64,000 nucleotides of DNA from Fibrobacter succinogenes (GTDB lineage Bacteria > Fibrobacterota > Fibrobacteria > Fibrobacterales > Fibrobacteraceae), in the NCBI GenBank assembly GCA_902762305.1, contig CACWNW010000013.1, positions 1 to 64,000 on the forward strand, given 5' to 3'. The notes under the pieces were generated by a model, which saw only the letters and a program-made list of their open reading frames with translations, did not search any database and was not told the origin of the DNA. The position numbers and the translations under genes were made by a program. Each line of letters begins with the position of its first letter. Position 1 is the stretch's first letter. This document shows, in pieces, positions 48,033-60,766 of the stretch.

Positions 48033-49916
48033 TTAGTTGGCGCCAGTCAGGTCGAAACCGAGAACAGCCTGCATCGGGTTTTCGGTACGCTCATCTTCAC
48101 TCATGAGAACGATGCGGAAAGTAAGGTACTGGGCGTTCGATGAAAAGGTCACCTTTTCAAAAGCGTTCTTGTCGCTGTTAGAGACAGCCCTGTAGTTATT
48201 GATATCGATATTATCCACATCGCTTGAATTATTATCGTAGACGTACAAGTCGAAATTCTGCGGAATCATTCCATGGGTAGCTATATCATCACCGCTGCTC
48301 AACCATGCGATGGCGGCAGAGAAATTGTGTTTTCCCGAAGGACGCTTGACACTAAATCTGAGTTCAGATTTTATTGCGACAATATGCGTGCTCATCCTCG
48401 GCCAATTGCCAATCCAATAACGCGAATCATGCGAATAGTTTTCGTGATGGAAGCGGTTGAAGACCGTGCTCTTATAAGAGGGAATTTTCGTCGTCACCGG
48501 TGTGAGATCAGATAAATAATACGGATTATTTATATTGATTTCGCCAACATTGAGCAACAACGCCTTGACCACTTCAGGGTGCCAACGGTAGAACGGATTA
48601 GCCCTCAAAAGTCCCGCCACCATGCTTGCCGTATAAGTCGCCGCCGCTTCAGTTCCATCATAATTGGGGGACGGATTATAGGTATGGTCATAATACCAGT
48701 GGCTATACGTTCTCTTCATATCGCCCGGCATCTTGAATTCGGAATAATTGAAAATTTCCGGCTTACTGGATCCTTCTACCGTATACTGACCATTGGAACA
48801 ATGACCTATACCCATGACACAATATTTCGATTTGTTCGAGGTATAGCTTGCGATTTGCCCACTGGCGGCATCAACAGCCCCGACCGTAATGGCATTGGCC
48901 GCATGTGCCTGCGGATTGAGCTGGCCGAGGTTGTTCCGAATCCTGCGATTACCGGCTGCCACCACATCTACTGTTCTATTATCATAGATATAGTTGTCAA
49001 GATCCCGAGCCTCGGCAGTATAGTAGGTCGCGATCTCTTGATTTACACCGGATTCATCTTTTCGGTTATGGAGACCAACATATACCTGCGGATTCTTAAA
49101 TCTCGGGCCCTGGGGCAGAAGATCCGCAATATAGATTGCCGTATTCTTGGTTGTTTCCTTTAATATGCTATAAGCCTTTGATGCAGCCACTTCCCTTTCC
49201 GGAGAGGGAGCATAGGAAGGATTATTTTCATACAGGGCATACTGCAACTGCTTTGAAGGGTCCAGTCGGACTGGTTTCGCGCCTATATCAATATAGAGGC
49301 CGACATCACCACATTCCTGGCACTGGCTATAACCGGCATCGAACCACCAGCCAATATCCCCCCTCTTTAATCCAACAGAATGAGGCAGATTATTATACTC
49401 TACATCCCAATAAGAAGTGGGAGCGAATGCGCTGCCATCATATTGTTCCGAAACGTCATAACGTTGTACGTAAGAAACTGGAGTTGATCCCGAAAAAAGA
49501 TTACTCGGCGTTTGATTTTTTACCACATTGGTGGGGATAAAGACGCTATTGGACGTACTCAAATACGAATTGACCGACTCCGCCATGGACACGATGGGAG
49601 CTTCGTCGGGATAATATTCCTTCAATGAAAAATAATATGGCGAGCCATTCTTGGCATAAGCCACCCCTTCCGTATTGAATTCACCCGATAAGGCAATGGG
49701 CCCATTCAAACCCGTCGGTCTTTTCATCAAGGCCTTTTTCCCTTGCGGAGAGGCAAACTCCTGCTGCTCATTCTTTTTCACCTTCTGATAGTCAACATTC
49801 CTGTAAACCATCGGTGAATTCATCTTGCTACCATTACGGCCAAGAAGGTCATAATTTGTCGCGGCAAAGGCTGTTGCGCACCCAAGCGCCACGTACAAGG
49901 CTATTTTTTCATTCAT
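48033..49916 (-). CDS. Secreted subtilisin-like paralog 2, probably catalytically dead
   Basis: This 627-residue protein has the same layout and the same MN.K..LYVALGCATAFAATNYDLLGRNG start as paralogs 1 and 3. AAGN is intact here (DVVAAGNRRIRN), but the serine element reads DGTEAAATYTASMVAGLL, with Glu where the catalytic Ser is expected. CQECGDVGLYIDIGAKPVRL and the C-terminal FSVKRPSGKHNFSAAIAWLSSGDD ... FDLYVYDNN are kept. The intergenic gap to paralog 1 is 114 bp and carries ATTCATC-ACAAG-GATGAAT but no clear promoter. GGAGTAAAAGG precedes the ATG. Confidence 0.75.
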   Translation of the reverse strand: MNEKIALYVALGCATAFAATNYDLLGRNGSKMNSPMVYRNVDYQKVKKNEQQEFASPQGKKALMKRPTGLNGPIALSGEFNTEGVAYAKNGSPYYFSLKEYYPDEAPIVSMAESVNSYLSTSNSVFIPTNVVKNQTPSNLFSGSTPVSYVQRYDVSEQYDGSAFAPTSYWDVEYNNLPHSVGLKRGDIGWWFDAGYSQCQECGDVGLYIDIGAKPVRLDPSKQLQYALYENNPSYAPSPEREVAASKAYSILKETTKNTAIYIADLLPQGPRFKNPQVYVGLHNRKDESGVNQEIATYYTAEARDLDNYIYDNRTVDVVAAGNRRIRNNLGQLNPQAHAANAITVGAVDAASGQIASYTSNKSKYCVMGIGHCSNGQYTVEGSSKPEIFNYSEFKMPGDMKRTYSHWYYDHTYNPSPNYDGTEAAATYTASMVAGLLRANPFYRWHPEVVKALLLNVGEININNPYYLSDLTPVTTKIPSYKSTVFNRFHHENYSHDSRYWIGNWPRMSTHIVAIKSELRFSVKRPSGKHNFSAAIAWLSSGDDIATHGMIPQNFDLYVYDNNSSDVDNIDINNYRAVSNSDKNAFEKVTFSSNAQYLTFRIVLMSEDERTENPMQAVLGFDLTGAN

Positions 49917-49958
49917 CCTTTTACTCCTGTTATTTATGAATAAAACTTGTTTTCATAA

Positions 49959-51775
49959 TCAGTTTGTCGAAGCCACATCAAAGCCCAGAACAACCTGCCT
50001 GAAATTTTCAGAACGGGAATCTTCGCTCGTGAGGACAATGCGGAACGTAAGGTATTGCGCGTCAGTCGGCGGAAGCGACACCCTCTCAAAAGAGTTGTTC
50101 GGGCTCTTCGAAGACGCAATAAGATGTTCGTCATCAATACCATCCACATTATCGGAGTTATTTTCGTATACGAACAGGTCAAAATTCTGCGGAATCTTCC
50201 CATAATTGGCGATATCGTTACCGCTTGTCAACCAGGCAATAGCCGCAGAGAAATTACGCTTGCCGTCAGGGCGTTTGACATTAAAGCGAATCTCACGCAC
50301 GCCGTTCTTTACATGCGTAAAGAAACGCGCCCATTTGCCAACCCAATAGCGGGATTCATGGAAGCGATTGCTGTTGAAACGATTAAAGACTACACTATTG
50401 TAAACCGGAATCTTTGTCGTCGCCACATTACTTTCCCCATGCGGATACGGAGTCGCAATGTTATTCACGCCAGCATTAAGCAGCACCGCCTTCACGACTT
50501 CAGGATGCCAACGGTAGAACGGGTTAGCCCTCAGGAGTGCAGCCACCTGAGCCGCCGTATAAGTCGCCGCAGCCTCGGTTCCATCGTAATTGGGAGATGC
50601 ATTATACGTCTGCCCACCGCGAGTGTACGTCCTCTTCCTGTCTCCAGTCCTAGAGAACTCGGAATAGTTGTAGATTTCGGGCTTGAGGGAACCTGCTGTA
50701 GGATTAACCTCATTCTGGCAATGACCAATACCTGCTTCGCAATATCTGGACTTATTCGACGTGTAATCAGCAATTCTACCTGTATAGGAATCAATCGCCC
50801 CCACAGTAATGGCGTTGGCCGCATGCGCCTGCGCATTGAGTTGAGCGTCGTTGTTCCTAATCCAGTAATTACCGGCGGCAACGATATCTACGGTACGGTT
50901 TTCGTAGATGTAGTTGTCCAGCGCCCTAGCCTCTTCGCCATAGTACGTGGCGGCCTCGTGAAGCACATTGGGGTCGTTTTTCCGGTTATGGAGGCCGATA
51001 TACACCTGCGGGCTCTTGGATTCCGGATTTTCAGGCAGGCCATTGGAAACAAAGAACGTCGTATTCTTGGTCGTCTCGCTCAACAGGCTATACGCCTTCG
51101 ACGCAATCACTTCCCTTTCAGGATCAGGGTTCATTGCTTCACCCTGGTTGTACGCAATATACGAAGTCGTCTTGTTCGGCTCCAACCTGACCGGGAACGC
51201 ACCTATATCCATATACATGCCGACATCGGCGCATTCCTGACACTGGCCGTAGCCATTATCGAACCACCACCCTATACTTCCTCTATTGGCCATAATGTTA
51301 CCGAATTCCACCGTCCAAAACGTGGTAGGGGCATACGACGAAGCATCATATGGCTCCGAAAGGGTATAGTTCGTGAACGTGGCCTGGCCAGAAGTCTGTA
51401 TGCCGCTGGGCGTATAATTCTGGACAAGGTTTGTAGGGATAAAGTAAAAATTAGGATGCTCCAAATATTCAGCCAAATCGGAGTAATAACCTAGAACGGA
51501 AGGAGCGAACCATTGTACGATAAACCACTTGTACTGAAGATACCTTCCAAGCCATCAATCCAATACAATCTAGACGAAAGCTTTTTCAGGGCTTTATTCC
51601 CCCGCTGCACGCCAACATCCTGCTGGTTATCCTTTTTCATTTTGGAATAGTCCACATTCCTGTAGACCATCGGGGAATTCATCTTGCTTCCGTTACGGCC
51701 AAGAAGGTCGTAATTTGTCGCGGCAAAAGCTGTTGCGCATCCAATCGCTACGCACAAGGCTAATTTTTCATTCAT
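49959..51775 (-). pseudogene. Subtilisin-like paralog 3, split by a frameshift
   Basis: This is one former gene in two frames. 51491-51775 encodes the N-terminal 94 residues (MNEKLALCVAIGCATAFAATNYDLLGRNG ... LSYNGSLLPF, stop). 49959 to about 51500 continues in another frame (GYYSDLAEYLEHPNFYFIPTNLVQNYTPSG ... VVLGFDVASTN) and aligns with paralogs 1 and 2 to the end. A one-base shift near 51490-51505 (CTCCTTCCGTTCTAGG on the minus strand) joins them. The site has no homopolymer, so slippage is not obvious. The core also has DGTEAAATYTAAQVAALL in place of the serine element. A sequencing error cannot be excluded. Confidence 0.8.
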
Positions 51776-52087: not shown

Positions 52088-52501
52088 CTAAAACCCGAGA
52101 ACGGCTTCGGAAATTTCGTTCGCTTCGTCGGAGTAGTCATCGGCAAAATCAGCGGTAAATTCGCCCCAGGCTTCGCTCTCGCCGCACCCTACCCCAACAT
52201 CCATCGAAGACCACTTGAACACTCCATAGACGCGTTCAAAACGCTCCATGAGTTCTTCCATGAATTCATCGGGAAAATCTTCTTCGGTGTAGATACTGCC
52301 ATCCATGGCAAGCAGCTCCGTCTCGGGGAGTTCCTCGAAACGGCATTCATATTCGTCGGTCATCACGTCGGTGACGCTATACCACTCACCGGAATCGGAA
52401 TCGGGCAGTTCCGCATCCGGGAACTTGCATACAAATTCATCCCACAGGGAAGCGAGATCATCGTATTCCCCGATAAAACGCATCAGCATCCGGTAAGCCA
52501 T
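52088..52501 (-). CDS. Acidic hypothetical protein at the end of the Zorya-like operon
   Basis: I do not recognise this 137-residue protein. It is strongly acidic (EFVCKFPDAELPDSDSGEW, DEYECRFEELPETELL, EEDFPDEFMEELMERFERVYGVF, FADDYSDEANEISEAVLGF) with two or three helices. GGGG before the ATG at 52501 favours this start over an in-frame codon at 52549 that overlaps the upstream gene. The gap to the upstream gene is 25 bp, so it is probably cotranscribed. Confidence 0.65.
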   Translation of the reverse strand: MAYRMLMRFIGEYDDLASLWDEFVCKFPDAELPDSDSGEWYSVTDVMTDEYECRFEELPETELLAMDGSIYTEEDFPDEFMEELMERFERVYGVFKWSSMDVGVGCGESEAWGEFTADFADDYSDEANEISEAVLGF

Positions 52502-52526
52502 ACGTACCCCAATTCTACTTCGGTTA

Positions 52527-53183
52527 TCACTTCTTGTCTTGCGGGACAAGGCGCTCGACTATTCGGAACAAGTCGTTATAAATATCCAGGAAGTCTTCAA
52601 TCCAAATCGGGTCGCGCTCGCCAATCACCTGGAAGGTCTCTTCGAGAGTATGGCGCGAATTGTACGGGCCCACCAGCGTCCCCGCCGGCTGCACAAACGA
52701 ACCCTGGCGGTAATCCGTCGAGGCGATGCGCGCCCTGTAAGAACGACGGAGTCGCGCAATCAGGGCGCTGCGAAGCGAAAGGAGTTCTTCGTGCGCTTCC
52801 AGGAACTTGGACTCGTCCAGCCATTTTTCCACCTCGTCAATGCGGCGCGTAATGGCTTCGCGTTCCGTCGAGGGGACAAGCATTTTCTTCTTCAAAAGAG
52901 TCGCGCGCACCTGCTCAACGATATTCCTGAGCATGTCGGCATTCCAGAACACCATCGGAGTTGTCTCAGAGACTGTTCCGGCCGATGCTGGCGGCTCATG
53001 CGTCGCAATCCAGCGGGAAAGCTTGTCGAGAACCATGTTCGCCTCGGGCTCGCGGTCAATCGCGATATAGTCCTCCGCACGCTCCAGGAGCGTCTCGGCA
53101 TAGACCATGCGCCAGTGCGGGAGCGTTCCCGACTTGCGTATGGAATCTATCGAATGGTGAACTGATTCTATGCGTTCAAGCAT
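52527..53183 (-). CDS. Hypothetical protein downstream of ZorB-like gene (ZorG/DUF2894-like position)
   Basis: This 218-residue soluble helical protein starts in an overlap with the zorB-like stop (TGATG). The opening IDSIRKSGTLPHWRMVYAETLLERAEDYI ... MVLDKLSRWI resembles the W/R-x-G ... RF..IEAL..RA ... LD.KL pattern of DUF2894 proteins that accompany type III Zorya motors. Long helices follow (EREAITRRIDEVEKWLDESKFLEAHEELLSLRSALIARLRRSYRAR). The resemblance is by eye and weak. Position and coupling are the stronger argument that it belongs to the motor. Confidence 0.6.
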   Translation of the reverse strand: MLERIESVHHSIDSIRKSGTLPHWRMVYAETLLERAEDYIAIDREPEANMVLDKLSRWIATHEPPASAGTVSETTPMVFWNADMLRNIVEQVRATLLKKKMLVPSTEREAITRRIDEVEKWLDESKFLEAHEELLSLRSALIARLRRSYRARIASTDYRQGSFVQPAGTLVGPYNSRHTLEETFQVIGERDPIWIEDFLDIYNDLFRIVERLVPQDKK

Positions 53184-53821
53184 CAGCGGGCACTCCCCAG
53201 GCGAAGCGGTGTCACACCGATTTCCACGCGACGGTTGAGACGACGGTGCTCTTCGGTGTCGTTGGGGTACTTGGGCCTAAATTCGCCGAAACCCGCAGCA
53301 AAGATACGGTCGGAAGGGAACCCCTGGTTAATGAGGGTCTTCACCACGTTCACGGCGCGTTCGGTAGAAAGATTCCAGTTCGTATAGTTCGTAGACGAGC
53401 TGAAGGGAATGTCGTCGGTAAAGCCGCTCACCATCACGACATCGCCCGTATCGAGCGCATCAAGCAAGCCCTTGCTGATGCCCTTGATGACGCCCACGCC
53501 TTCCTTGGTAAGGTTTGCACCGTTGGTCGGGAAAAGGAACGAAGCCTGAATCTGGATCTTGCCGTCTTCGAGCGCGATGAGGCCCGCCTCGATGGAAGTC
53601 TGCAGGCTCTTCGCCAAAAGGGCATTGCGCTCCGTGGCAATCTTGCGCATTTCTTCCTGGCAGTTCAACACCTCTTCCTCGGTACGGGTAAGGTCTTCCG
53701 CCTTCTGCTCCTTCAAGGTCGCCATGGCGACGAACGCCAATATGAACAGCGAAACGAGGGCAATACCTAGGTCGGTATAGGCCATCCACGGATTGCTGCC
53801 TTCTTCGCGACGTAAACGCAT
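53183..53821 (-). CDS. MotB/ZorB-like protein with OmpA domain
   Basis: This 212-residue inner-membrane protein has one membrane segment (about 13-33) with a conserved ion-channel aspartate D17 in WMAYTDLGIALVSLFILAF, a coiled linker, and a C-terminal OmpA/MotB peptidoglycan-binding domain (about 95-205; VVMVSGFTDDIPF, NLSTERAVNVVKTLINQG, GFGEFRPKYPNDTEEHRRLNRRVEIGV). This is the stator subunit that anchors a MotA-like channel to the wall. It follows the MotA-like gene after 3 bp. No flagellar gene is near, which favours a Zorya-type role. Confidence 0.85.
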   Translation of the reverse strand: MRLRREEGSNPWMAYTDLGIALVSLFILAFVAMATLKEQKAEDLTRTEEEVLNCQEEMRKIATERNALLAKSLQTSIEAGLIALEDGKIQIQASFLFPTNGANLTKEGVGVIKGISKGLLDALDTGDVVMVSGFTDDIPFSSSTNYTNWNLSTERAVNVVKTLINQGFPSDRIFAAGFGEFRPKYPNDTEEHRRLNRRVEIGVTPLRLGSAR

Positions 53822-53824
53822 AGG

Positions 53825-55498
53825 CTAGCCCTCTGCCTTGGGATTGGAAATCTGGGCGGCGCGCTGCGTCTGTTCCAGCACTTCGAGGAGGATTTCCTGA
53901 GTCTTGACCGCATTCTCGAGGAGCACTTCGCTTGCGCGCTCGTGGAACGCTTCCAGGGACTGGTTGAGGCGTTCGACAAAGTTTTCCTCGTCGTCGTGTT
54001 CCGAAGTATCGCCGCTGAGTTTCTCGAGGATTGTCTCGAGGGCGCTGCGCAGCATTTCGAGGTTCGCGCTGAGTTCGCTCTGGTTCACGCGCATGAGTTC
54101 CGCCGTCTGCACGATGTTTCCGCCGAGGGCGTCGGTAGCTTCCTTCTCCTTCACGACGCGGTTGTCGATGCTTTCGGTAAGCGCCTTCTGAGCCTCGAGC
54201 AGCACGGCCGACGTATCGGAAAGCTTCTGGAAGGCAGAAAGGATATCGGTAGAAAGCGTCCCCAGCTTTTCGGCCACGGACTGCGAAAGTTCCGCAGAAC
54301 CCGCCTGCGCCTTCTCAGCCACCTGGAGAGCCACGTTCTTGAGAGTCTCGAGGCCTTCCTTCTGGGATTCCATGTTCGCGCTCGTCTCGGAGGCGAGCTT
54401 GTCCATAAAGCTCTTCCACTGTTCGTCGGACTGCCTGACCTGATCGGAGACTGCGACGGCAACATTCTTCGTCGCGGATTCCATCGCCTTCTCGGTCGCA
54501 GAGGCGACACCCGAAAGGCCTTCCTTCACGCCAGAAGAGATGCCCTCCAGGCCAGAATTCAGGCCCGCAGAGATTGCGTTCAGGCGTTCGTCCAGCTTGC
54601 CCGGAATAGATTCCACGGAACCGGCGAGCGACGCAATTTCATTTTTCATCGGATTGAACGCATCCGAAATGCTGCCGCCGATGGAATCACCCAGCCTGTC
54701 GACGGAGCCGTTCATGTTCTCGAGAGTGCCGGAAAGCTTCTCGCCCACTTCGGAGACAATATCGTTGAGCGAAGCCTGCACAGATTCGGTGACCTTGCGG
54801 AGATTTTCTTCGACGGAATCGAACAGGCGGCCGAGTTCATCCCTGCTCTTCTCATTTTCGCCAGCAGATTCGCCCTGCATGTTCAGCGTGAGGGCATCGA
54901 GGCGCACGACAAAGGCGTCACGGCGACCGAGGAAGATTCCGCGCGATGCATTGAGCATGAGGGCAGCAAACAGGCCGCAAAGGCTCGTGCCGAAGATTCC
55001 CTTCATGTTGCCGAAAAGCACCTGGATGGTATCGAGCGTACCCTGCGTGGTCGAATTGTCGATTGCGACACCCGCCGTAGCGACAGAATACATAAGACCA
55101 AAGAAGGTACCCATAAGGCCGAGGAGAATCACCGTTCCACCCGAGCTGCGGGGAACAGCCACAGTAGAACCGTTGGAAAGGACTTCGAACGCTATCGGGG
55201 AATCAAGCCGAATGCCCTTCGAAAGCATATCGTGCGCCTGCTTCAAGCGCTTCGCCACGATTCCGTCGCCGGAGACAGAGAACGTTCGGCTGTTCTCGCA
55301 CGATTCGATAAGGCTTTCCTCTTCGGCGATGCGCCTGAGACTCGCGAGGAGCTTGAACTGTTCAACAATGAACACGGCGAAAATCGCCGCCATGATGATC
55401 CAGCCGAAGAGCGGAGCCCCGAAGTAGAAGGCGCCCGCAACCAGGACGAGCAATCCAACAACGGAGAGAACCAGAATCGAGTTAAATGCGTTCTTCAT
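53825..55498 (-). CDS. MotA/TolQ/ExbB-ZorA-like protein with long cytoplasmic coiled tail
   Basis: This 557-residue protein has four predicted membrane segments (about 6-26, 29-46, 122-146, 166-184) with the family elements GGTVILLGLMGTFFGLMYSV and GIFGTSLCGLFAALML. About 350 residues of low-hydrophobicity helix then follow (SVEENLRKVTESVQASLNDIV ... EVLLENAVKTQEILLEVLEQTQRAAQ), with repeats of the type found in methyl-accepting or apolipoprotein-like coiled coils. A long tail is the feature that separates ZorA from MotA. The next gene is MotB-like. Ion-driven motor function is inferred. Confidence 0.82.
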   Translation of the reverse strand: MKNAFNSILVLSVVGLLVLVAGAFYFGAPLFGWIIMAAIFAVFIVEQFKLLASLRRIAEEESLIESCENSRTFSVSGDGIVAKRLKQAHDMLSKGIRLDSPIAFEVLSNGSTVAVPRSSGGTVILLGLMGTFFGLMYSVATAGVAIDNSTTQGTLDTIQVLFGNMKGIFGTSLCGLFAALMLNASRGIFLGRRDAFVVRLDALTLNMQGESAGENEKSRDELGRLFDSVEENLRKVTESVQASLNDIVSEVGEKLSGTLENMNGSVDRLGDSIGGSISDAFNPMKNEIASLAGSVESIPGKLDERLNAISAGLNSGLEGISSGVKEGLSGVASATEKAMESATKNVAVAVSDQVRQSDEQWKSFMDKLASETSANMESQKEGLETLKNVALQVAEKAQAGSAELSQSVAEKLGTLSTDILSAFQKLSDTSAVLLEAQKALTESIDNRVVKEKEATDALGGNIVQTAELMRVNQSELSANLEMLRSALETILEKLSGDTSEHDDEENFVERLNQSLEAFHERASEVLLENAVKTQEILLEVLEQTQRAAQISNPKAEG

Positions 55499-55506
55499 TT
55501 TTATCC

Positions 55507-56421
55507 TTAATTTTTAGCCTCGGCCGAGGCCGTTGTTTCAAACAAGTTCAACTGACCGCGGGAGAACCCGCGAAGAAATACAGACCACTTGCTGTGGTAC
55601 CATTTAATCACATGGAGCGTCAATTCGCGGGCATAGTCGCAGAAGTCGTCCGTAAAGGCAAGGAACCCGTTCTCGTAGGCATAGTGCGGATTCCAGAAGC
55701 GTCCCGCGTTCCTCGCGCACGAGGCCGCAGTGCGGTAATAGCGAGTGGTTGCCTTGGTATTGAACGCCGCCGCAAAGCGCTTTTTCGCGAGCACGTTCAG
55801 GGAACTGCGCAGGGAAACGACCATCGCGTTTTCCTTTTCGCGGAGAGACGATTCCAGGCAGGGCAAAAGCTTCGAGACCGCATCGACGGCACTCTCGCCA
55901 TGCCAGTACTTGCAGAGTTTTTCTTGCAACTGCATTACACGGCCATGCATGCGCACGAACAGCGGCTCGGCATCGCTCACCAGCAGGTGGATTGTCGCGG
56001 AATAGAACGCGTTCACATCCTGCTTGTTGTTCTTCACGGCAAGCATCCAGCCCTTCTCCTCGTCATGGACCAAGAAGTCTCCGCCCTCGAGCAAAAGGCG
56101 CAGGACCTCGTCCGTAGAGAAGCGTTGCATCCACTTGGCGCGGAACTCGTCGTAAAGCTTGTTCGCATCGGCAATAATCTGCGGGAAACTCGCATCGGCA
56201 AGTTTCCATGCGGTCTCGCTGTACGAAATCTGTTCGGAGCTGCCGACCGACGGGTCGAGATTGTTGAACAGTGCATCGAGATGTTCGAACAGGGCGATGG
56301 ACCAGGTGACCATCATGGACTGGGAAAGATCCGCTACCATGGACGACCTGTTCGGGCAGGCATTCAGGCGAATGCTTGCGCCAGTCATCTTTCTTATGGC
56401 TCGACGGAATGACTCTTCCAC
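55507..56421 (-). CDS. Hypothetical protein upstream of ZorA-like gene (ZorF/DUF3348-like position)
   Basis: This 304-residue soluble helical protein starts at GTG (56421), with GAGG 5 nt before it. The central part (FVRMHGRVMQLQEKLCKYW ... DAVSKLLPCLESSLREKENAMVVSLRSSLNVLAKKRF) follows the M...LR ... LDA.LE..L..RE..LL...P.LL..RF pattern of DUF3348 proteins that open type III Zorya operons. The match is by eye. The gap to the ZorA-like gene is 8 bp. No enzymatic motif is visible. Confidence 0.6.
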   Translation of the reverse strand: MEESFRRAIRKMTGASIRLNACPNRSSMVADLSQSMMVTWSIALFEHLDALFNNLDPSVGSSEQISYSETAWKLADASFPQIIADANKLYDEFRAKWMQRFSTDEVLRLLLEGGDFLVHDEEKGWMLAVKNNKQDVNAFYSATIHLLVSDAEPLFVRMHGRVMQLQEKLCKYWHGESAVDAVSKLLPCLESSLREKENAMVVSLRSSLNVLAKKRFAAAFNTKATTRYYRTAASCARNAGRFWNPHYAYENGFLAFTDDFCDYARELTLHVIKWYHSKWSVFLRGFSRGQLNLFETTASAEAKN

Positions 56422-56430
56422 ATCAACCTC

Positions 56431-57150
56431 TTAGAATCCGGTCTCTATGCGCTGCCAGACACTCCGGCTCACACGCTTGCCTGCACCCGCCATTTCTTCG
56501 AATTCCTTGCGGACATCCGATTCCAGGTTTCCCTTGATAGCAGACAAATCGCCGCTGTAATTGCCGCCCGCTTCAAGATAAAGCCCGTAGACGTTCTCGG
56601 AAATTCTTGTATCGGCAGAAATGACCTTGCCCGCACGTATGGAGAGCGCAAAGCGGTTGCGCACGAAATCACAACGTGCAAGGAAGACCTCGGGGACGTC
56701 GTCGACCCAGAGACCGTAGTAGTTGTTCACGAAATTCACATTCTCGAAGATTCCGCGCGAACGGAACACGGTATTGCGGAACGCGTTCTGCACCACGAAG
56801 TTCTTCACTTCGAAGGGGCGGCTGGTAGACACGAAATGCAGGCCGTTCCAGCTGCCGCTCGAATCAGCACTGCGGAACACGACCGGCTTGGCTTCGGTAC
56901 CCAGGATGTGGATGGACCCGCGGAGGGTGAGCTTCGCGTATTCCCCCATGAGCACGGTGACGCCCGGTTCGACATAGAGCGTATCGGTAGCGGAAACCAC
57001 GACCCCCTGTTCAAGGATGTACGGGCTATCCTTCTCCGTAAGGCGAATGTTGCCGTTTTCTGGATGCGGGAACGGCATCTCGCTTGCAAGCACCGCAGCC
57101 ACAAGCAGCAGAGCCGTGCAAAATGCAAATTTCAAACCGCGCGAAAACAT
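56431..57150 (-). CDS. Secreted right-handed beta-helix protein
   Basis: This 239-residue exported protein has a signal peptide ending VLAS (about residue 22). The mature part has short repeated strands typical of parallel beta-helices (VVVSATDTLYVEPGVTVLMGEYAKLTLRGSIHILGTEAKPVVFRSAD ... FVVQNAFRNTVFRSRGIFENVNFVNNYYGLWVDDVPEVFLARCDFVRNRFALSIRAG). The start overlaps the stop of the upstream lipoprotein gene (TAATG), and the next gene follows 9 bp after its end. It is therefore part of the motor operon and suggests an envelope-side component. Confidence 0.75.
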   Translation of the reverse strand: MFSRGLKFAFCTALLLVAAVLASEMPFPHPENGNIRLTEKDSPYILEQGVVVSATDTLYVEPGVTVLMGEYAKLTLRGSIHILGTEAKPVVFRSADSSGSWNGLHFVSTSRPFEVKNFVVQNAFRNTVFRSRGIFENVNFVNNYYGLWVDDVPEVFLARCDFVRNRFALSIRAGKVISADTRISENVYGLYLEAGGNYSGDLSAIKGNLESDVRKEFEEMAGAGKRVSRSVWQRIETGF

Positions 57151-57980
57151 TAGAATTCACTCCGTAACTTGATTTTCTGGAGCACATGCATATCAGGAAT
57201 CACGTTGTTCGCGACAAGATCATTCACGTCGACATGGCCCGACAGGTCGAGCGCCACCGACGAAATCACGCCATGCGTCATGTCGAACAGGATGGAACCC
57301 GTACCGACAACAAAGCCCTTGCTTTCCATCTGCACATTGGCGGTAGAATCGGCGACCTCGCGGTACTTGACGTTCATCCCGATTTTCGCCATCTGGGCAC
57401 CGTCGTGCAGGTAGACCTCTTCGAGGGTGAAGGACTTGTAGACCGTAGTCGTCTTGTTGTTCTCAGGAATTTCGACCGTGCGTTCCCAGGTCTCGCCCAC
57501 CTTCACCGGGTTGCCCGGAAGAATCGGCTGAACCTTCATGAACAGCTTGAGCAGGTTGAGTTCCTCGGAACCCGGCTGCAAGGCGACATCTTCCACAGCA
57601 GGTTCGCTCACGGAGCCATCGGGCGCCATCTTGTACTGGAAGTGCTGCGTCAGCAGGTACTTCTCGATATAGAGGTAGTCCTCGACCGTGCGCTTGTCGC
57701 TCTTGTAGTCGACCGAATCAATCTTCATCTCGAAACGGCCCGAGCCGTTGTCGTAGGCCACCAGTTCGGAAAGCGTGGCCTGCACCTTCAGGTGGGTTTC
57801 CATCGCCTCGGGGACGGTGACTCCGGAATCGCTCGGGAGCATGGCGTCGATAGACGATTCCAGGAAATACTTTTGAACGGGAGCACTCTGGGTGTTGAAT
57901 GCCAAGGAAACGTCATTGCCATCGCAAGAACACAGGATAATCAGCGCAGCCGATGCAGCGCAAAACTTGGTAAAACTCAT
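57150..57980 (-). CDS. Lipoprotein, first gene of the Zorya-like operon
   Basis: This 276-residue exported lipoprotein has lipobox LIILCSC (Cys about 17-19). The mature part is beta-rich with SSIDAMLPSDSGVTVPEAMETHLKVQATLSELVAYDNGSGRFEMKIDSVDYKSDK, KVGETWERTVEIPENNKTTTVYKSFTLEEVYL and DMTHGVISSVALDLSGHVDV, reminiscent of DUF6263-type lipoproteins. It heads the seven-gene operon with a promoter in 57981-58043. Its role with the motor is unknown. Confidence 0.72.
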   Translation of the reverse strand: MSFTKFCAASAALIILCSCDGNDVSLAFNTQSAPVQKYFLESSIDAMLPSDSGVTVPEAMETHLKVQATLSELVAYDNGSGRFEMKIDSVDYKSDKRTVEDYLYIEKYLLTQHFQYKMAPDGSVSEPAVEDVALQPGSEELNLLKLFMKVQPILPGNPVKVGETWERTVEIPENNKTTTVYKSFTLEEVYLHDGAQMAKIGMNVKYREVADSTANVQMESKGFVVGTGSILFDMTHGVISSVALDLSGHVDVNDLVANNVIPDMHVLQKIKLRSEF

Positions 57981-58043: not shown

Positions 58044-58559
58044 TCAGGATTTTGCGCCCGAGTCGCCCTTTTCGAGACGCATACGCTGGAAGAACGCCTT
58101 AAGGAGCCCGAGGCACTCGTCGGCGAGCACTCCGCCCACCACCTCGACATCGCGCTTGAGGGCGTTATTCGTAATCACATCGATGGTCGTGCCACAGCCT
58201 CCGAAGCGGGTATCCGGAGAACCATAGACAACACGGGAGATACGGCTGTTGAGGATGGCACCCGCGCACATCGGGCATGGTTCGAGCGTTACATACAAAG
58301 TAGCACCCTCCAGGCGCCAGTTTTCAAGTTTGCCGGATGCAGTCCCGATGGAAAGGATTTCGGCATGGGCGGTGGCATCCTTGAGCATCTCTATCTGGTT
58401 GTGACCACGGCCGATGACCACGCCATCCTTAACGATGACGCAGCCGATAGGGATTTCCTTCTCCTCGAAGGCCTTCTCCGCCTCACGGAGTGCCATGCGC
58501 ATATAGCGTTCGTCTTCGGGATTAGACGTGAAATTTTCTTTATCGGTTGCTTTATCCAT
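58044..58559 (-). CDS. tadA: tRNA-specific adenosine deaminase
   Basis: TadA converts A34 to inosine in tRNA-Arg(ACG). The 171-residue product has the deaminase zinc motifs HAE (in DATAHAEILSIGTAS) and PCPMC (in VTLEPCPMCAGAIL), with PIGCVIVKDGVVIGRGHN before and RFGGCGTTIDV after. The N-terminal 18 residues are an extension of low conservation. It may share a transcript with the membrane gene upstream. Confidence 0.95.
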   Translation of the reverse strand: MDKATDKENFTSNPEDERYMRMALREAEKAFEEKEIPIGCVIVKDGVVIGRGHNQIEMLKDATAHAEILSIGTASGKLENWRLEGATLYVTLEPCPMCAGAILNSRISRVVYGSPDTRFGGCGTTIDVITNNALKRDVEVVGGVLADECLGLLKAFFQRMRLEKGDSGAKS

Positions 58560-58901: not shown

Positions 58902-58963
58902 AGATCCATCGACTTCGCCCGATCCTATCGCCCTATCGCTACGCTCCAGGGCTCCAGGATGAC
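58902..58963. repeat. Intergenic GATCC...GATGAC element, copy 4
   Basis: The element is GATCCATCGAC, then CCTATCGCCCTATCGC, then CTCCAGGGCTCCAGGATGAC. It is similar in layout to 6684-6750, where the inner palindrome is CCCTGGAGCGAAGCGATAGGG. It runs to the stop of the radical SAM gene. Confidence 0.55.
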
Positions 58964-59952
58964 TACAATCCCCGTCCATACGCGCAGTAGGAATCTTCCT
59001 GCATGTAGTCGCCATCGTGGTAATAGGCAGCACGGGCGCGGCAACCGCCGCAGCGGTCGTTGAACTTGCACTTGCCGCAGGCACCGGCGTAGGCCTTGGT
59101 ACGGAGTTTCTTGAACACCTCGGCATTCGCCCAGATTTCGTCGAACGGCGTGTCGTGAACGTCGCCCGCCTCTTCCATCATGTAGGCGCAGGGGCGCACC
59201 TTGCCGATGGGGCTTACAATGCAGTAGTCAAGACCGGCGAGGCAGCCGCGGCTGTAGCGCGTTTTGATATCGAGCTGATCGGCAATGCGCAAAAACTGCG
59301 GGGCGCATGTGGGTTTGACGGGGATGCCAAGCGTGCGGCTCTTTTCCATAATCTTGCGGAGCAAACCTTCATATTCGGCGACGCGGAGGGCGTGACCTTC
59401 AATCTCCTTGCCCCGGCCCACGGGAATGAGGAAGAATATCTGGTGGTTCACCGCACCGATTTCCTTGACCCAGTCCATGATGTCGAAAATCTCGTTCTGG
59501 TTCCAGTCCATGATGGTCGTGTGAATCTGGAACGGGAGGCCTGCCGCCTTGCAGTTTTCGATGCCCATCATCGTGAGTTCGAAGGCGTTCGGGAGGCCAC
59601 GGAAGTCATTATGGCGATCGTGGTCGATACTGTCGATGCTAATGCCCATCGCCATCGCGCCGGCGGCCTTCAGCTTGAACGCCAAGTCGTGCGTAATGAG
59701 CGTACCGTTGGTGCCGAACACCGGACGTAAACCCTTGCTCGAAGCGTGGGCGACGAGGTCCACAATGTCGGGACGGGTCATCGGCTCGCCGCCGCTGAAA
59801 ATCATGATCTTGAATCCGGCCTTGGCAATCTCGTCAATGAGCTTGAGCGCCTCGGCGGTCGTGAGTTCAGCCGCCTTGTTCTCGCCTGCGTCCTGGTAGC
59901 AGTGCTTGCAGGTCAGGTTACACTTGTTGGTGGTCATCCAAGATACAATCAT
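58963..59952 (-). CDS. Radical SAM enzyme with SPASM-type C-terminus (AhbD/NirJ-like)
   Basis: This 329-residue enzyme has the radical SAM cluster motif C11-NLT-C15-KH-C18, then SGGEPMTRPDI, GTNGTLI and GISIDS, and a C-terminal Fe-S domain CGKCKFNDRCGGCRARAAYYHDGD ... DSYCAY. The overall text (MIVSWMTTNKCNLTCKHCYQDAG, GCRARA) is closest to heme-d1/alternative heme synthesis enzymes such as NirJ and AhbC/AhbD. No other tetrapyrrole gene is adjacent, so the substrate is open and a peptide-modifying role is possible. The ATG at 59952 is chosen over 60033. Confidence 0.85.
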   Translation of the reverse strand: MIVSWMTTNKCNLTCKHCYQDAGENKAAELTTAEALKLIDEIAKAGFKIMIFSGGEPMTRPDIVDLVAHASSKGLRPVFGTNGTLITHDLAFKLKAAGAMAMGISIDSIDHDRHNDFRGLPNAFELTMMGIENCKAAGLPFQIHTTIMDWNQNEIFDIMDWVKEIGAVNHQIFFLIPVGRGKEIEGHALRVAEYEGLLRKIMEKSRTLGIPVKPTCAPQFLRIADQLDIKTRYSRGCLAGLDYCIVSPIGKVRPCAYMMEEAGDVHDTPFDEIWANAEVFKKLRTKAYAGACGKCKFNDRCGGCRARAAYYHDGDYMQEDSYCAYGRGL

Positions 59953-59992
59953 AATTTTCGCCTGTTCAAATTCTATACGCAAATATAGAAAA

Positions 59993-60013
59993 CGCCCGGC
60001 ATGGTGCCGGGCG
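59993..60013. terminator. Hairpin between the radical SAM gene and the small lipoprotein pair
   Basis: CGCCCGGCA-TGG-TGCCGGGCG, a perfect 9-bp stem downstream of the two lipoprotein genes on the minus strand. The T run is weak. Confidence 0.7.
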
Positions 60014-60039
60014 CCTAGACTTTCTATTTCCAAATCCGA

Positions 60040-60408
60040 TTAGAAACCGAACTTTTCTGCCTGAGCAACGAGTTCGTCACAAGGCTGCTCCGCCAAGGAT
60101 TCCTCATAGAAATATGCGGTATAGGACGCACCGTCCTTTTCGCCTTCACACTTCTTGATAGCCTTGCCAGGGCACTCCGAGCCAACCTTGCCTGCATCGG
60201 GGAACATTGCAACAACCCCGTCACAGACAGTATTGACCTTGGACTGGTCTTCTGATTCAATGCACGTACGTACAGCGATGATACCCGCATCAATATCGAT
60301 ATCGCAGGAATACTTCTTCGCAGCCGGAGCTGTACTAGAAGAATCATCACCGCAGGCCGTAAAGAGCGCTGCGCCAGCAACCATGGAAACGAACAGCAAC
60401 TTCTTCAT
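60040..60408 (-). CDS. Small lipoprotein B of a tandem pair
   Basis: This 122-residue lipoprotein has lipobox ALFTAC (Cys19), followed by GDDSSS. The mature part has three cysteine pairs (YSCDIDIDAGIIAVRTC, NTVC, SEC, KKC) and ends YTAYFYEESLAEQPCDELVAQAEKFGF. The last element is similar to MTVYFYDSRDARYSCSELLDDLDL in the upstream gene, so the two are paralogs. It starts 1 bp after the upstream stop codon. Function unknown. Confidence 0.75.
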   Translation of the reverse strand: MKKLLFVSMVAGAALFTACGDDSSSTAPAAKKYSCDIDIDAGIIAVRTCIESEDQSKVNTVCDGVVAMFPDAGKVGSECPGKAIKKCEGEKDGASYTAYFYEESLAEQPCDELVAQAEKFGF

Positions 60409-60409
60409 A

Positions 60410-60766
60410 TTAAAGATCGAGATCGTCCAGGAGTTCCGAGCACGAGTAGCGAGCATCACGAGAATCGTAGAAGTAGACCGTCATGGAGTTGCCGTTATAA
60501 TCGTAACCATCGCAGACCATAGAAGCACCGCCATCGCAACCATAATCTTCGATACCGGAAACAGACGTGTAGTAGTCAGCTTCAGCCCTGAATTCACTGC
60601 AGGCCCTTGCGGTAGTCACAGAAGAAGGAGCGGTCACGCAGATATGGTCTGTAATACGACCATTTTCTCTCCAAGTTGCGTCGCAGGACGGATTTTCGAC
60701 AGTGATTTCACAGCCCGTGAAAAGAGCCACGGCAGAAACCATGGATGCAAGCAGAATCTTCTTCAT
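60410..60766 (-). CDS. Small lipoprotein A of a tandem pair
   Basis: This 118-residue lipoprotein has lipobox ALFTGC (Cys19). The mature part has six further cysteines. The shared ending YFYDSRDARYSCSELL suggests descent with the neighbouring gene from a duplication. The ATG at 60766 has GGAG before it. Expression of both as one unit is likely. Function unknown. Confidence 0.75.
   Translation of the reverse strand: MKKILLASMVSAVALFTGCEITVENPSCDATWRENGRITDHICVTAPSSVTTARACSEFRAEADYYTSVSGIEDYGCDGGASMVCDGYDYNGNSMTVYFYDSRDARYSCSELLDDLDL

What the first reader, a model, noticed from the sequence alone, without database searches (positions are those of the whole stretch)
52088..57980. Seven-gene operon with ZorA/ZorB-like motor proteins: a type III-like Zorya with envelope partners
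Seen: a four-pass MotA/TolQ-like protein with a long coiled cytoplasmic tail, a MotB-like protein with channel Asp17 and an OmpA domain, and soluble helical proteins before and after them, all with gaps of 0-25 bp or overlaps. Known: type III Zorya pairs ZorAB with DUF3348-like and DUF2894-like proteins, and the flanking genes here show faint matches to both. New here: a lipoprotein and a beta-helix protein at the head and an acidic protein at the end. It could be a defence system with added envelope parts, or a different ion-driven machine.
Basis: partly seen in the sequence, partly recalled or inferred. Interest (0 to 1): 0.72.

Follow-up and report, generated by a model that had tools for sequence, protein, structure and literature searches.

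The report
Core Zorya-like motor of Fibrobacter
A set of six neighbouring genes encodes an ion-driven membrane motor related to a bacterial anti-virus system, but it is carried by practically every Fibrobacter and inherited like a basic cell component, which suggests that this kind of motor does an everyday job as well as, or instead of, fighting viruses.

Summary
The motor pair is real. g5 is a ZorB of the type III clade (PADLOC 5e-41; tree support 98/88) and g4 a four-pass ZorA with a long cytoplasmic tail. Their neighbours g3 and g6 match no curated model, but sit exactly where type III Zorya has its DUF3348 and DUF2894 proteins and rank those families first among thousands of ORFs. Gene order DUF3348-ZorA-ZorB-DUF2894 is therefore shared with Proteobacteria.

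The defence reading fares worse. g3 is in 120 of 126 genomes of the class, 68 of 68 good ones, in fixed synteny and tracking kinship; Cas1 is in 39 of 126. Proteobacterial type III loci look equally core-like (77 of 81 Stenotrophomonas species).

Two findings are new. A lipoprotein and a beta-helix protein belong to the operon throughout most of the family. In 26 genomes, from two lineages, ZorB and ZorA's pore are missing while g3, a pore-less anchored tail and g6 stay together. g7 does not belong: it adjoins the operon in 8 of 73 genomes that have it.

Best reading: a housekeeping, peptidoglycan-anchored rotary motor homologous to type III Zorya, whose tail acts on a g3/g6 complex. The function itself is untested.

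The parts
57150..57980 (-). g1: predicted lipoprotein, DUF6263
   Evidence: Pfam DUF6263 29.7 bits, cut-off 26.7; relatives in 98 of 126 class genomes, next to g3 in the loci inspected
56431..57150 (-). g2: exported beta-helix protein
   Evidence: Pfam Beta_helix 8e-4, below cut-off; found between g1 and g3 in 23 of the 24 fetched loci of the family that carry the motor
55507..56421 (-). g3: soluble helical protein, remote relative of the DUF3348 protein of type III Zorya
   Evidence: no curated hit; DUF3348 ORFs take the top 5 places for its profile among 3486 ORFs; same position in operon
53825..55498 (-). g4: ZorA-type motor subunit, four membrane segments and long cytoplasmic tail
   Evidence: PADLOC ZorA3 7.9e-10; profile comparison with DUF802/ZorA3 1.1e-15 over 457 columns; solved ZorA chains are the best PDB hits of the family profile
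53183..53821 (-). g5: ZorB-type subunit, channel Asp17 and OmpA peptidoglycan-binding domain
   Evidence: PADLOC ZorB3 5.2e-41; clade with proteobacterial ZorB3, support 98/88
52527..53183 (-). g6: soluble helical protein, remote relative of the DUF2894 protein of type III Zorya
   Evidence: no curated hit; DUF2894 ORFs take the top 8 places for its profile; shared GP-N...P...F motif near the C terminus
52088..52549 (-). g7: acidic protein, judged NOT part of the system
   Evidence: in 73 of 80 genus genomes but next to the operon in 8 of these
58044..58559 (-). tadA-like deaminase gene directly upstream, conserved neighbour, probably a housekeeping leader gene
   Evidence: Pfam 8e-40; precedes g1 in 22 of the 24 motor-bearing loci of the family

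Best explanation
The operon encodes a constitutive, envelope-anchored rotary motor homologous to type III Zorya. Five g4 subunits around two g5 subunits would form an ion channel in the inner membrane; g5 holds on to peptidoglycan through its OmpA domain; ion flow turns the g4 ring and its roughly 50-nm cytoplasmic tail (5:2 stoichiometry and rotation are inferred from solved ZorAB; length estimated from about 350 helical residues). The conserved tail tip works on, or is held by, a complex of g3 and g6 (inferred from co-retention). g1 and g2 are exported partners on the outer side. The machine's role is a core cellular one, most likely monitoring or mechanically maintaining the envelope, and any phage protection is a by-product or secondary use. 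Shown: motor homology, gene order, vertical core distribution, motor-less derivatives. Inferred: constitutive expression, rotation, partner binding, the housekeeping role.
For: Motor identity. Same order as type III Zorya. g3 and g6 are remote relatives of DUF3348 and DUF2894. Core distribution: g3 in 120 of 126 class genomes, 0 of 41 other genomes of the phylum; 68 of 68 good-quality class genomes (68 matches, 68 such class genomes). Yardstick: Cas1 in 39 of 126, 23 of 68. Synteny. Distances of g3, g4, g5 and g6 follow those of tadA, r 0.76-0.83, 0 of 2000 permutations as high, 21 loci. DUF3348 in 77 of 81 Stenotrophomonas species. F-tail-G kept where the motor is missing.
Against: No experiment shows any housekeeping role. 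A type III Zorya from Stenotrophomonas nitritireducens lowered phage plaquing in E. coli (PMC8565338, passages read), so the family can act against phage. Core status does not exclude defence: type III Zorya is listed as a highly conserved defence system in Ralstonia solanacearum (PMC13064858, passages read). tadA is adjacent, so the distance comparison does not exclude transfer of the block as one piece. The tail-tip profile alone did not recognise proteobacterial ZorA (AUC 0.52).
Confidence: 0.6

Rival explanations
1. A dedicated anti-phage system that became fixed: a type III Zorya sensing envelope damage through peptidoglycan-bound g5 and acting through g3/g6, kept in all Fibrobacter because phage pressure is constant.
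For: Homology and gene order of type III Zorya; defence activity of one type III system in E. coli (PMC8565338); precedent for core defence systems (PMC13064858).
Against: No patchiness and no repeated loss of the whole locus in the class, unlike Cas1; no nuclease partner; motor lost in two lineages while the rest stays; knock-down of predicted defence genes, Zorya III among the predicted systems, gave no effect against one phage in B. cenocepacia (PMC12584637, passages read).
Confidence: 0.25
2. A motility, adhesion or secretion motor, analogous to Agl/Glt or GldLM, serving movement on cellulose.
For: Surface-attached lifestyle; Fibrobacter has Glt/Agl homologues by another study (PMC3169522, passages read); exported partners g1 and g2.
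Against: The motor groups with type III ZorB against 34 MotB-like proteins; Agl and Gld proteins were not in that tree; homologues are core in non-gliding genera such as Stenotrophomonas (lifestyle recalled); no motility shown in F. succinogenes (PMC3079729, passages read).
Confidence: 0.08
3. A TolQR/ExbBD-like energiser of the outer membrane in which g1 and g2 are the driven periplasmic parts.
For: Lipoprotein g1 and beta-helix g2 co-inherited with the motor.
Against: g5 has a MotB-type OmpA anchor, not a TolR/ExbD domain; g4 gives no MotA_ExbB hit at E up to 1; g1 persists in six motor-less genomes; Proteobacteria have the motor without g1/g2.
Confidence: 0.07

Closest known systems
Type III Zorya (ZorA3-ZorB3 with DUF3348 and DUF2894 proteins; PADLOC, Payne et al. 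2021)
   Same: Four genes in the same order; ZorB in the same clade; ZorA pore motif and tail; helical partners before and after
   Different: Partners too divergent for any curated model; lipoprotein and beta-helix genes added; one vertical copy in nearly every genome of the class; motor-less derivatives
Types I and II Zorya
   Same: ZorA/ZorB motor plan; solved ZorA chains are the best structural relatives by sequence
   Different: No ZorC, ZorD or ZorE; weaker model scores
Flagellar MotAB/PomAB
   Same: MotB-like channel aspartate and OmpA anchor
   Different: Long cytoplasmic tail, no flagellar context, separate clade

Membership tests
Type III Zorya | ZorB with channel aspartate and OmpA domain of type III | tested here: met
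   PADLOC ZorB3 5.2e-41 against ZorB1 1.1e-20; clade 98/88, ZorB1/ZorB2 proteins not in that tree
Type III Zorya | ZorA: pore helices plus long cytoplasmic tail | tested here: met
   ZorA3 models 7.9e-10, partly through the coiled tail; profile comparison 1.1e-15; pore residues G127, G130, T131, F169, G170, S172 invariant in 15 of 15. NCBIfam cut-off not reached: 36 of 250 bits
Type III Zorya | DUF3348 protein by curated model | tested here: not met
   no PADLOC, Pfam or NCBIfam match to DUF3348, while the Azoarcus protein scores 1.6e-83; remote homology only
Type III Zorya | DUF2894 protein by curated model | tested here: not met
   no match, Azoarcus control 8.5e-71; remote homology only
Type III Zorya | gene order DUF3348-ZorA-ZorB-DUF2894 | tested here: met
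   window order g3-g4-g5-g6 against five annotated operons
Type III Zorya | reduces phage infection | not testable with these tools
   needs phage challenge
Anti-phage defence system in general | patchy presence, horizontal spread, defence neighbourhood (usual, not strictly defining) | tested here: not met
   120 of 126 class genomes; fixed synteny; no clear defence genes among six neighbours scanned, only superfamily-level hits to deaminase, radical SAM and subtilase models
TolQ/ExbB or gliding motor | MotA_ExbB channel domain and TolR/ExbD-type partner | tested here: not met
   no MotA_ExbB hit at E up to 1; g5 carries OmpA and MotB_plug matches

The most novel reading that the evidence does not exclude
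Type III 'Zorya' is at root a housekeeping machine, spread over Proteobacteria and Fibrobacterota, from which or beside which the defence types arose. Its essential part is not the motor but the anchored tail with its DUF3348-like and DUF2894-like partners, since two Fibrobacteria lineages discarded ZorB and the ZorA pore and kept exactly that trio.
Probability: 0.35. Interest if true: 0.82.

Novelty: new variant of a known kind. Interest (0 to 1): 0.62.

Why it matters
Type III Zorya is counted as an anti-phage system in thousands of genomes. If its closest relatives are inherited like core genes and can shed the motor, defence inventories may be counting a housekeeping machine, and the cytoplasmic target of Zorya tails, still open, could be studied in motor-less natural variants that keep only tail and partners.

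Tried and rejected
Searched plasmids with g4: no match. PF11828 in 21 relatives: no match, and no control genome rang, so uninformative. PF15611 (ZorC signature, from recall) as a patchiness control in Stenotrophomonas: 0 of 81, no control rang, so uninformative. Tail-tip profile against proteobacterial ORFs failed; the tail homology rests on the full-length comparison and on the eye. Structure of g6 (mean pLDDT 72.7) gave no PDB fold with E below 1; g3 model was poor (60.0) and was not searched. Reciprocal ranking was weaker for DUF3348 (one true ORF first, then three false ones; AUC 0.93) than for DUF2894 (top nine true; AUC 0.954). Possible separate ZorB in motor-less genomes: the full-length hits are 24-28% identical, and one of two whose surroundings I read lies beside a short-tailed MotA-like gene (L167; for L168 no such gene was recognised), so I take them for other MotAB pairs. 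Papers: full-text passages only were read; the Nature 2025 Zorya structure paper is not held. Searches for Zorya with Fibrobacter found one paper, listing only; DUF802/DUF3348/DUF2894 found three; type III Zorya names found five. A lead not followed: FSU_0286 of F. succinogenes S85, an ExbB/MotA protein seen in the envelope proteome (PMC6851124, passages), might be g4's counterpart; no S85 sequence was identified here to check.
Full report
What is there. Seven minus-strand ORFs lie head to tail, led by a tadA-like deaminase gene 63 bp upstream of g1. g1 is a lipoprotein-like DUF6263 protein, g2 a beta-helix protein, g3 and g6 have no family, g4 and g5 are motor subunits, and g7 is a small acidic protein.

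The motor. g5 matches PADLOC ZorB3 at 5.2e-41, ZorB1 at 1.1e-20 and ZorB2 at 5e-5; g4 matches ZorA3 best, at 7.9e-10. In a tree of 61 proteins, 11 ZorB proteins from the class form one clade (97/96), sister to 14 proteobacterial type III ZorB and two further bacterial ones; together they stand apart from 34 MotB-like proteins with support 98/88. ZorB1, ZorB2, AglS and GldM were not in that tree. Channel aspartate and the peptidoglycan-binding signature are invariant in 10 aligned ZorB proteins, and ZorA pore residues in 15 aligned ZorA proteins. A ZorA family profile finds solved ZorA chains 8qyk, 8vvn and 8qyd as its three best hits and 8qyy fifth, at 2e-9 to 3.5e-7, mixed with and followed by apolipoproteins and designed coiled coils, which match through the coiled region. 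Cryo-EM of types I and II shows a 5:2 complex with a bundled tail, and mutants show that tail, ion flow and peptidoglycan binding matter for defence (PMC11890865, abstract and passages).

The partners. Five annotated plasmid operons read DUF3348, DUF802, OmpA, DUF2894 in that order, as the window reads g3, g4, g5, g6. Profile comparison of the class alignments with proteobacterial ones gave the matching family as best in every row: ZorB 1.9e-40, ZorA 1.1e-15, DUF3348 9e-4, DUF2894 1.3e-3, the last aligned over 175 columns; the reported probabilities for the last two are only 23% and 18%. As a stricter test, the class g3 profile was run over 3486 ORFs of named loci (those of the three Fibrobacter loci left out of the ranking): the five best were all DUF3348 (33 true, AUC 0.982 against 1663 ORFs); for g6 the eight best were all DUF2894 (34 true, AUC 0.956). 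The reverse search gave AUC 0.93 and 0.954, but for DUF3348 three of the four best were false. I take both as remote homologues, DUF2894 the more securely.

Distribution. g3 was found in 75 of 80 genomes of the genus, 30 of 31 others of the family, 2 of 2 others of the order, 13 of 13 others of the class, and 0 of 41 other genomes of the phylum. Two genomes (G079, G092) show two copies on different contigs; the rest show one. The six misses in the class are 62-88% complete. Among good-quality class genomes it is 68 of 68. Cas1, a true defence gene, is in 39 of 126 and 23 of 68. tadA-g1-g2-g3-g4-g5-g6 is conserved in all 14 same-genus loci read (of 40 loci fetched for synteny), with the radical SAM gene upstream in most and fabF in some. 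Protein distances of g3-g6 follow tadA, and the g3 tree broadly follows the family codes. This is vertical inheritance of a core locus.

Is type III Zorya elsewhere different? DUF3348 is in 77 of 81 Stenotrophomonas species, and in 98 of 150 genomes of the Burkholderia family, many of the listed absences being small genomes, though two of 5.4 and 6.4 Mb also lack it and 32 absences are not listed. So the core-like pattern is not confined to Fibrobacter. One published survey already lists type III Zorya as a highly conserved system in one species, Ralstonia solanacearum (PMC13064858, passages). I found no paper extending this to genus or class, or questioning the defence label, in the searches.

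Loss of the motor. Of 120 genomes with g3, 93 have a ZorB of at least 44% identity, two of them as partial hits (G125, G149); in 26 the best hits are OmpA domains or other MotB proteins, or there is none; one (G058) is unclear. I read 15 of the 26 loci. In 11 the gene after the pore-less g4 relative is g6's relative, in a 12th a small RelB-like ORF stands between them, and in three g6 or the tail gene was not clearly found. The pore-less proteins keep one or two N-terminal membrane segments and usually the C-terminal tail motif, but lack the pore region. On the g3 tree the motor label changes twice, and well-supported branches force both changes: once for families f3-f5, once for two genera of the window's family. 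Since Proteobacteria have the motor, two losses are the simplest account; one gain and one loss cannot be excluded, and some branches are long.

Envelope partners. g1 relatives are in 98 of 126 class genomes, including six motor-less ones (by g3 in the loci read), and in none of the 13 motor-less genomes of the window's family. They are absent from the five annotated proteobacterial operons read. g7 is a separate gene: present in 73 of 80 genus genomes, next to the operon in 8, with a promoter-like site before its ATG and a terminator-like hairpin after it (consensus matches only, not much above shuffles).

How it most likely works. A g4-g5 ion motor fixed to peptidoglycan turns or strains a long tail whose tip serves a g3-g6 complex in the cytoplasm; g1 and g2 lie outside. 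Retention of tail, g3 and g6 without motor suggests that this trio has a role of its own, perhaps as a membrane-tethered scaffold. Steady presence in every good genome argues for a cellular role. Against this stands one heterologous phage assay of a type III system (PMC8565338). Knock-down of predicted defence genes in B. cenocepacia, where Zorya III was among the predicted systems, showed no effect with one phage (PMC12584637), which is weak evidence either way.

Verdict. Homologous to, and built like, type III Zorya; two of its four components fail curated models, so it is not filed as a member. New variant of a known kind.

Noticed in passing
window 48033-51775: Two tandem subtilase-like genes; the upstream copy appears split by a frameshift near 51480 into ORFs 51491-51775 and 49959-51476.
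   Followed up: no
window 60040-60766: Two adjacent small lipoprotein-like paralogues with similar cysteine patterns.
   Followed up: no
window 58963-60033: Radical SAM/SPASM gene scoring 1.9e-23 on PADLOC viperin models, probably superfamily similarity; strongly conserved next to the operon in the genus.
   Followed up: partly
PADLOC-DB 2.0.0, models PDLC00652-00658: The database labels DUF3348 as ZorG3 and DUF2894 as ZorF3, opposite to the PADLOC paper's text.
   Followed up: partly
L051 10159-10395: Small RelB/DinJ-like ORF inserted between the pore-less tail gene and the g6 relative (the RelB likeness is by eye).
   Followed up: no
L043 4437-7175, L044 10867-13749, L045 4376-7234: A large serine/threonine kinase-like gene sits upstream of the g1 relative in three motor-less genomes (likeness by eye).
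   Followed up: no
L114 3267-8370: An 11.4-Mb bacterial genome has ZorA of 1231 aa, ZorB and a DUF2894 protein with the GPYN motif of Fibrobacter but no detectable DUF3348.
   Followed up: partly
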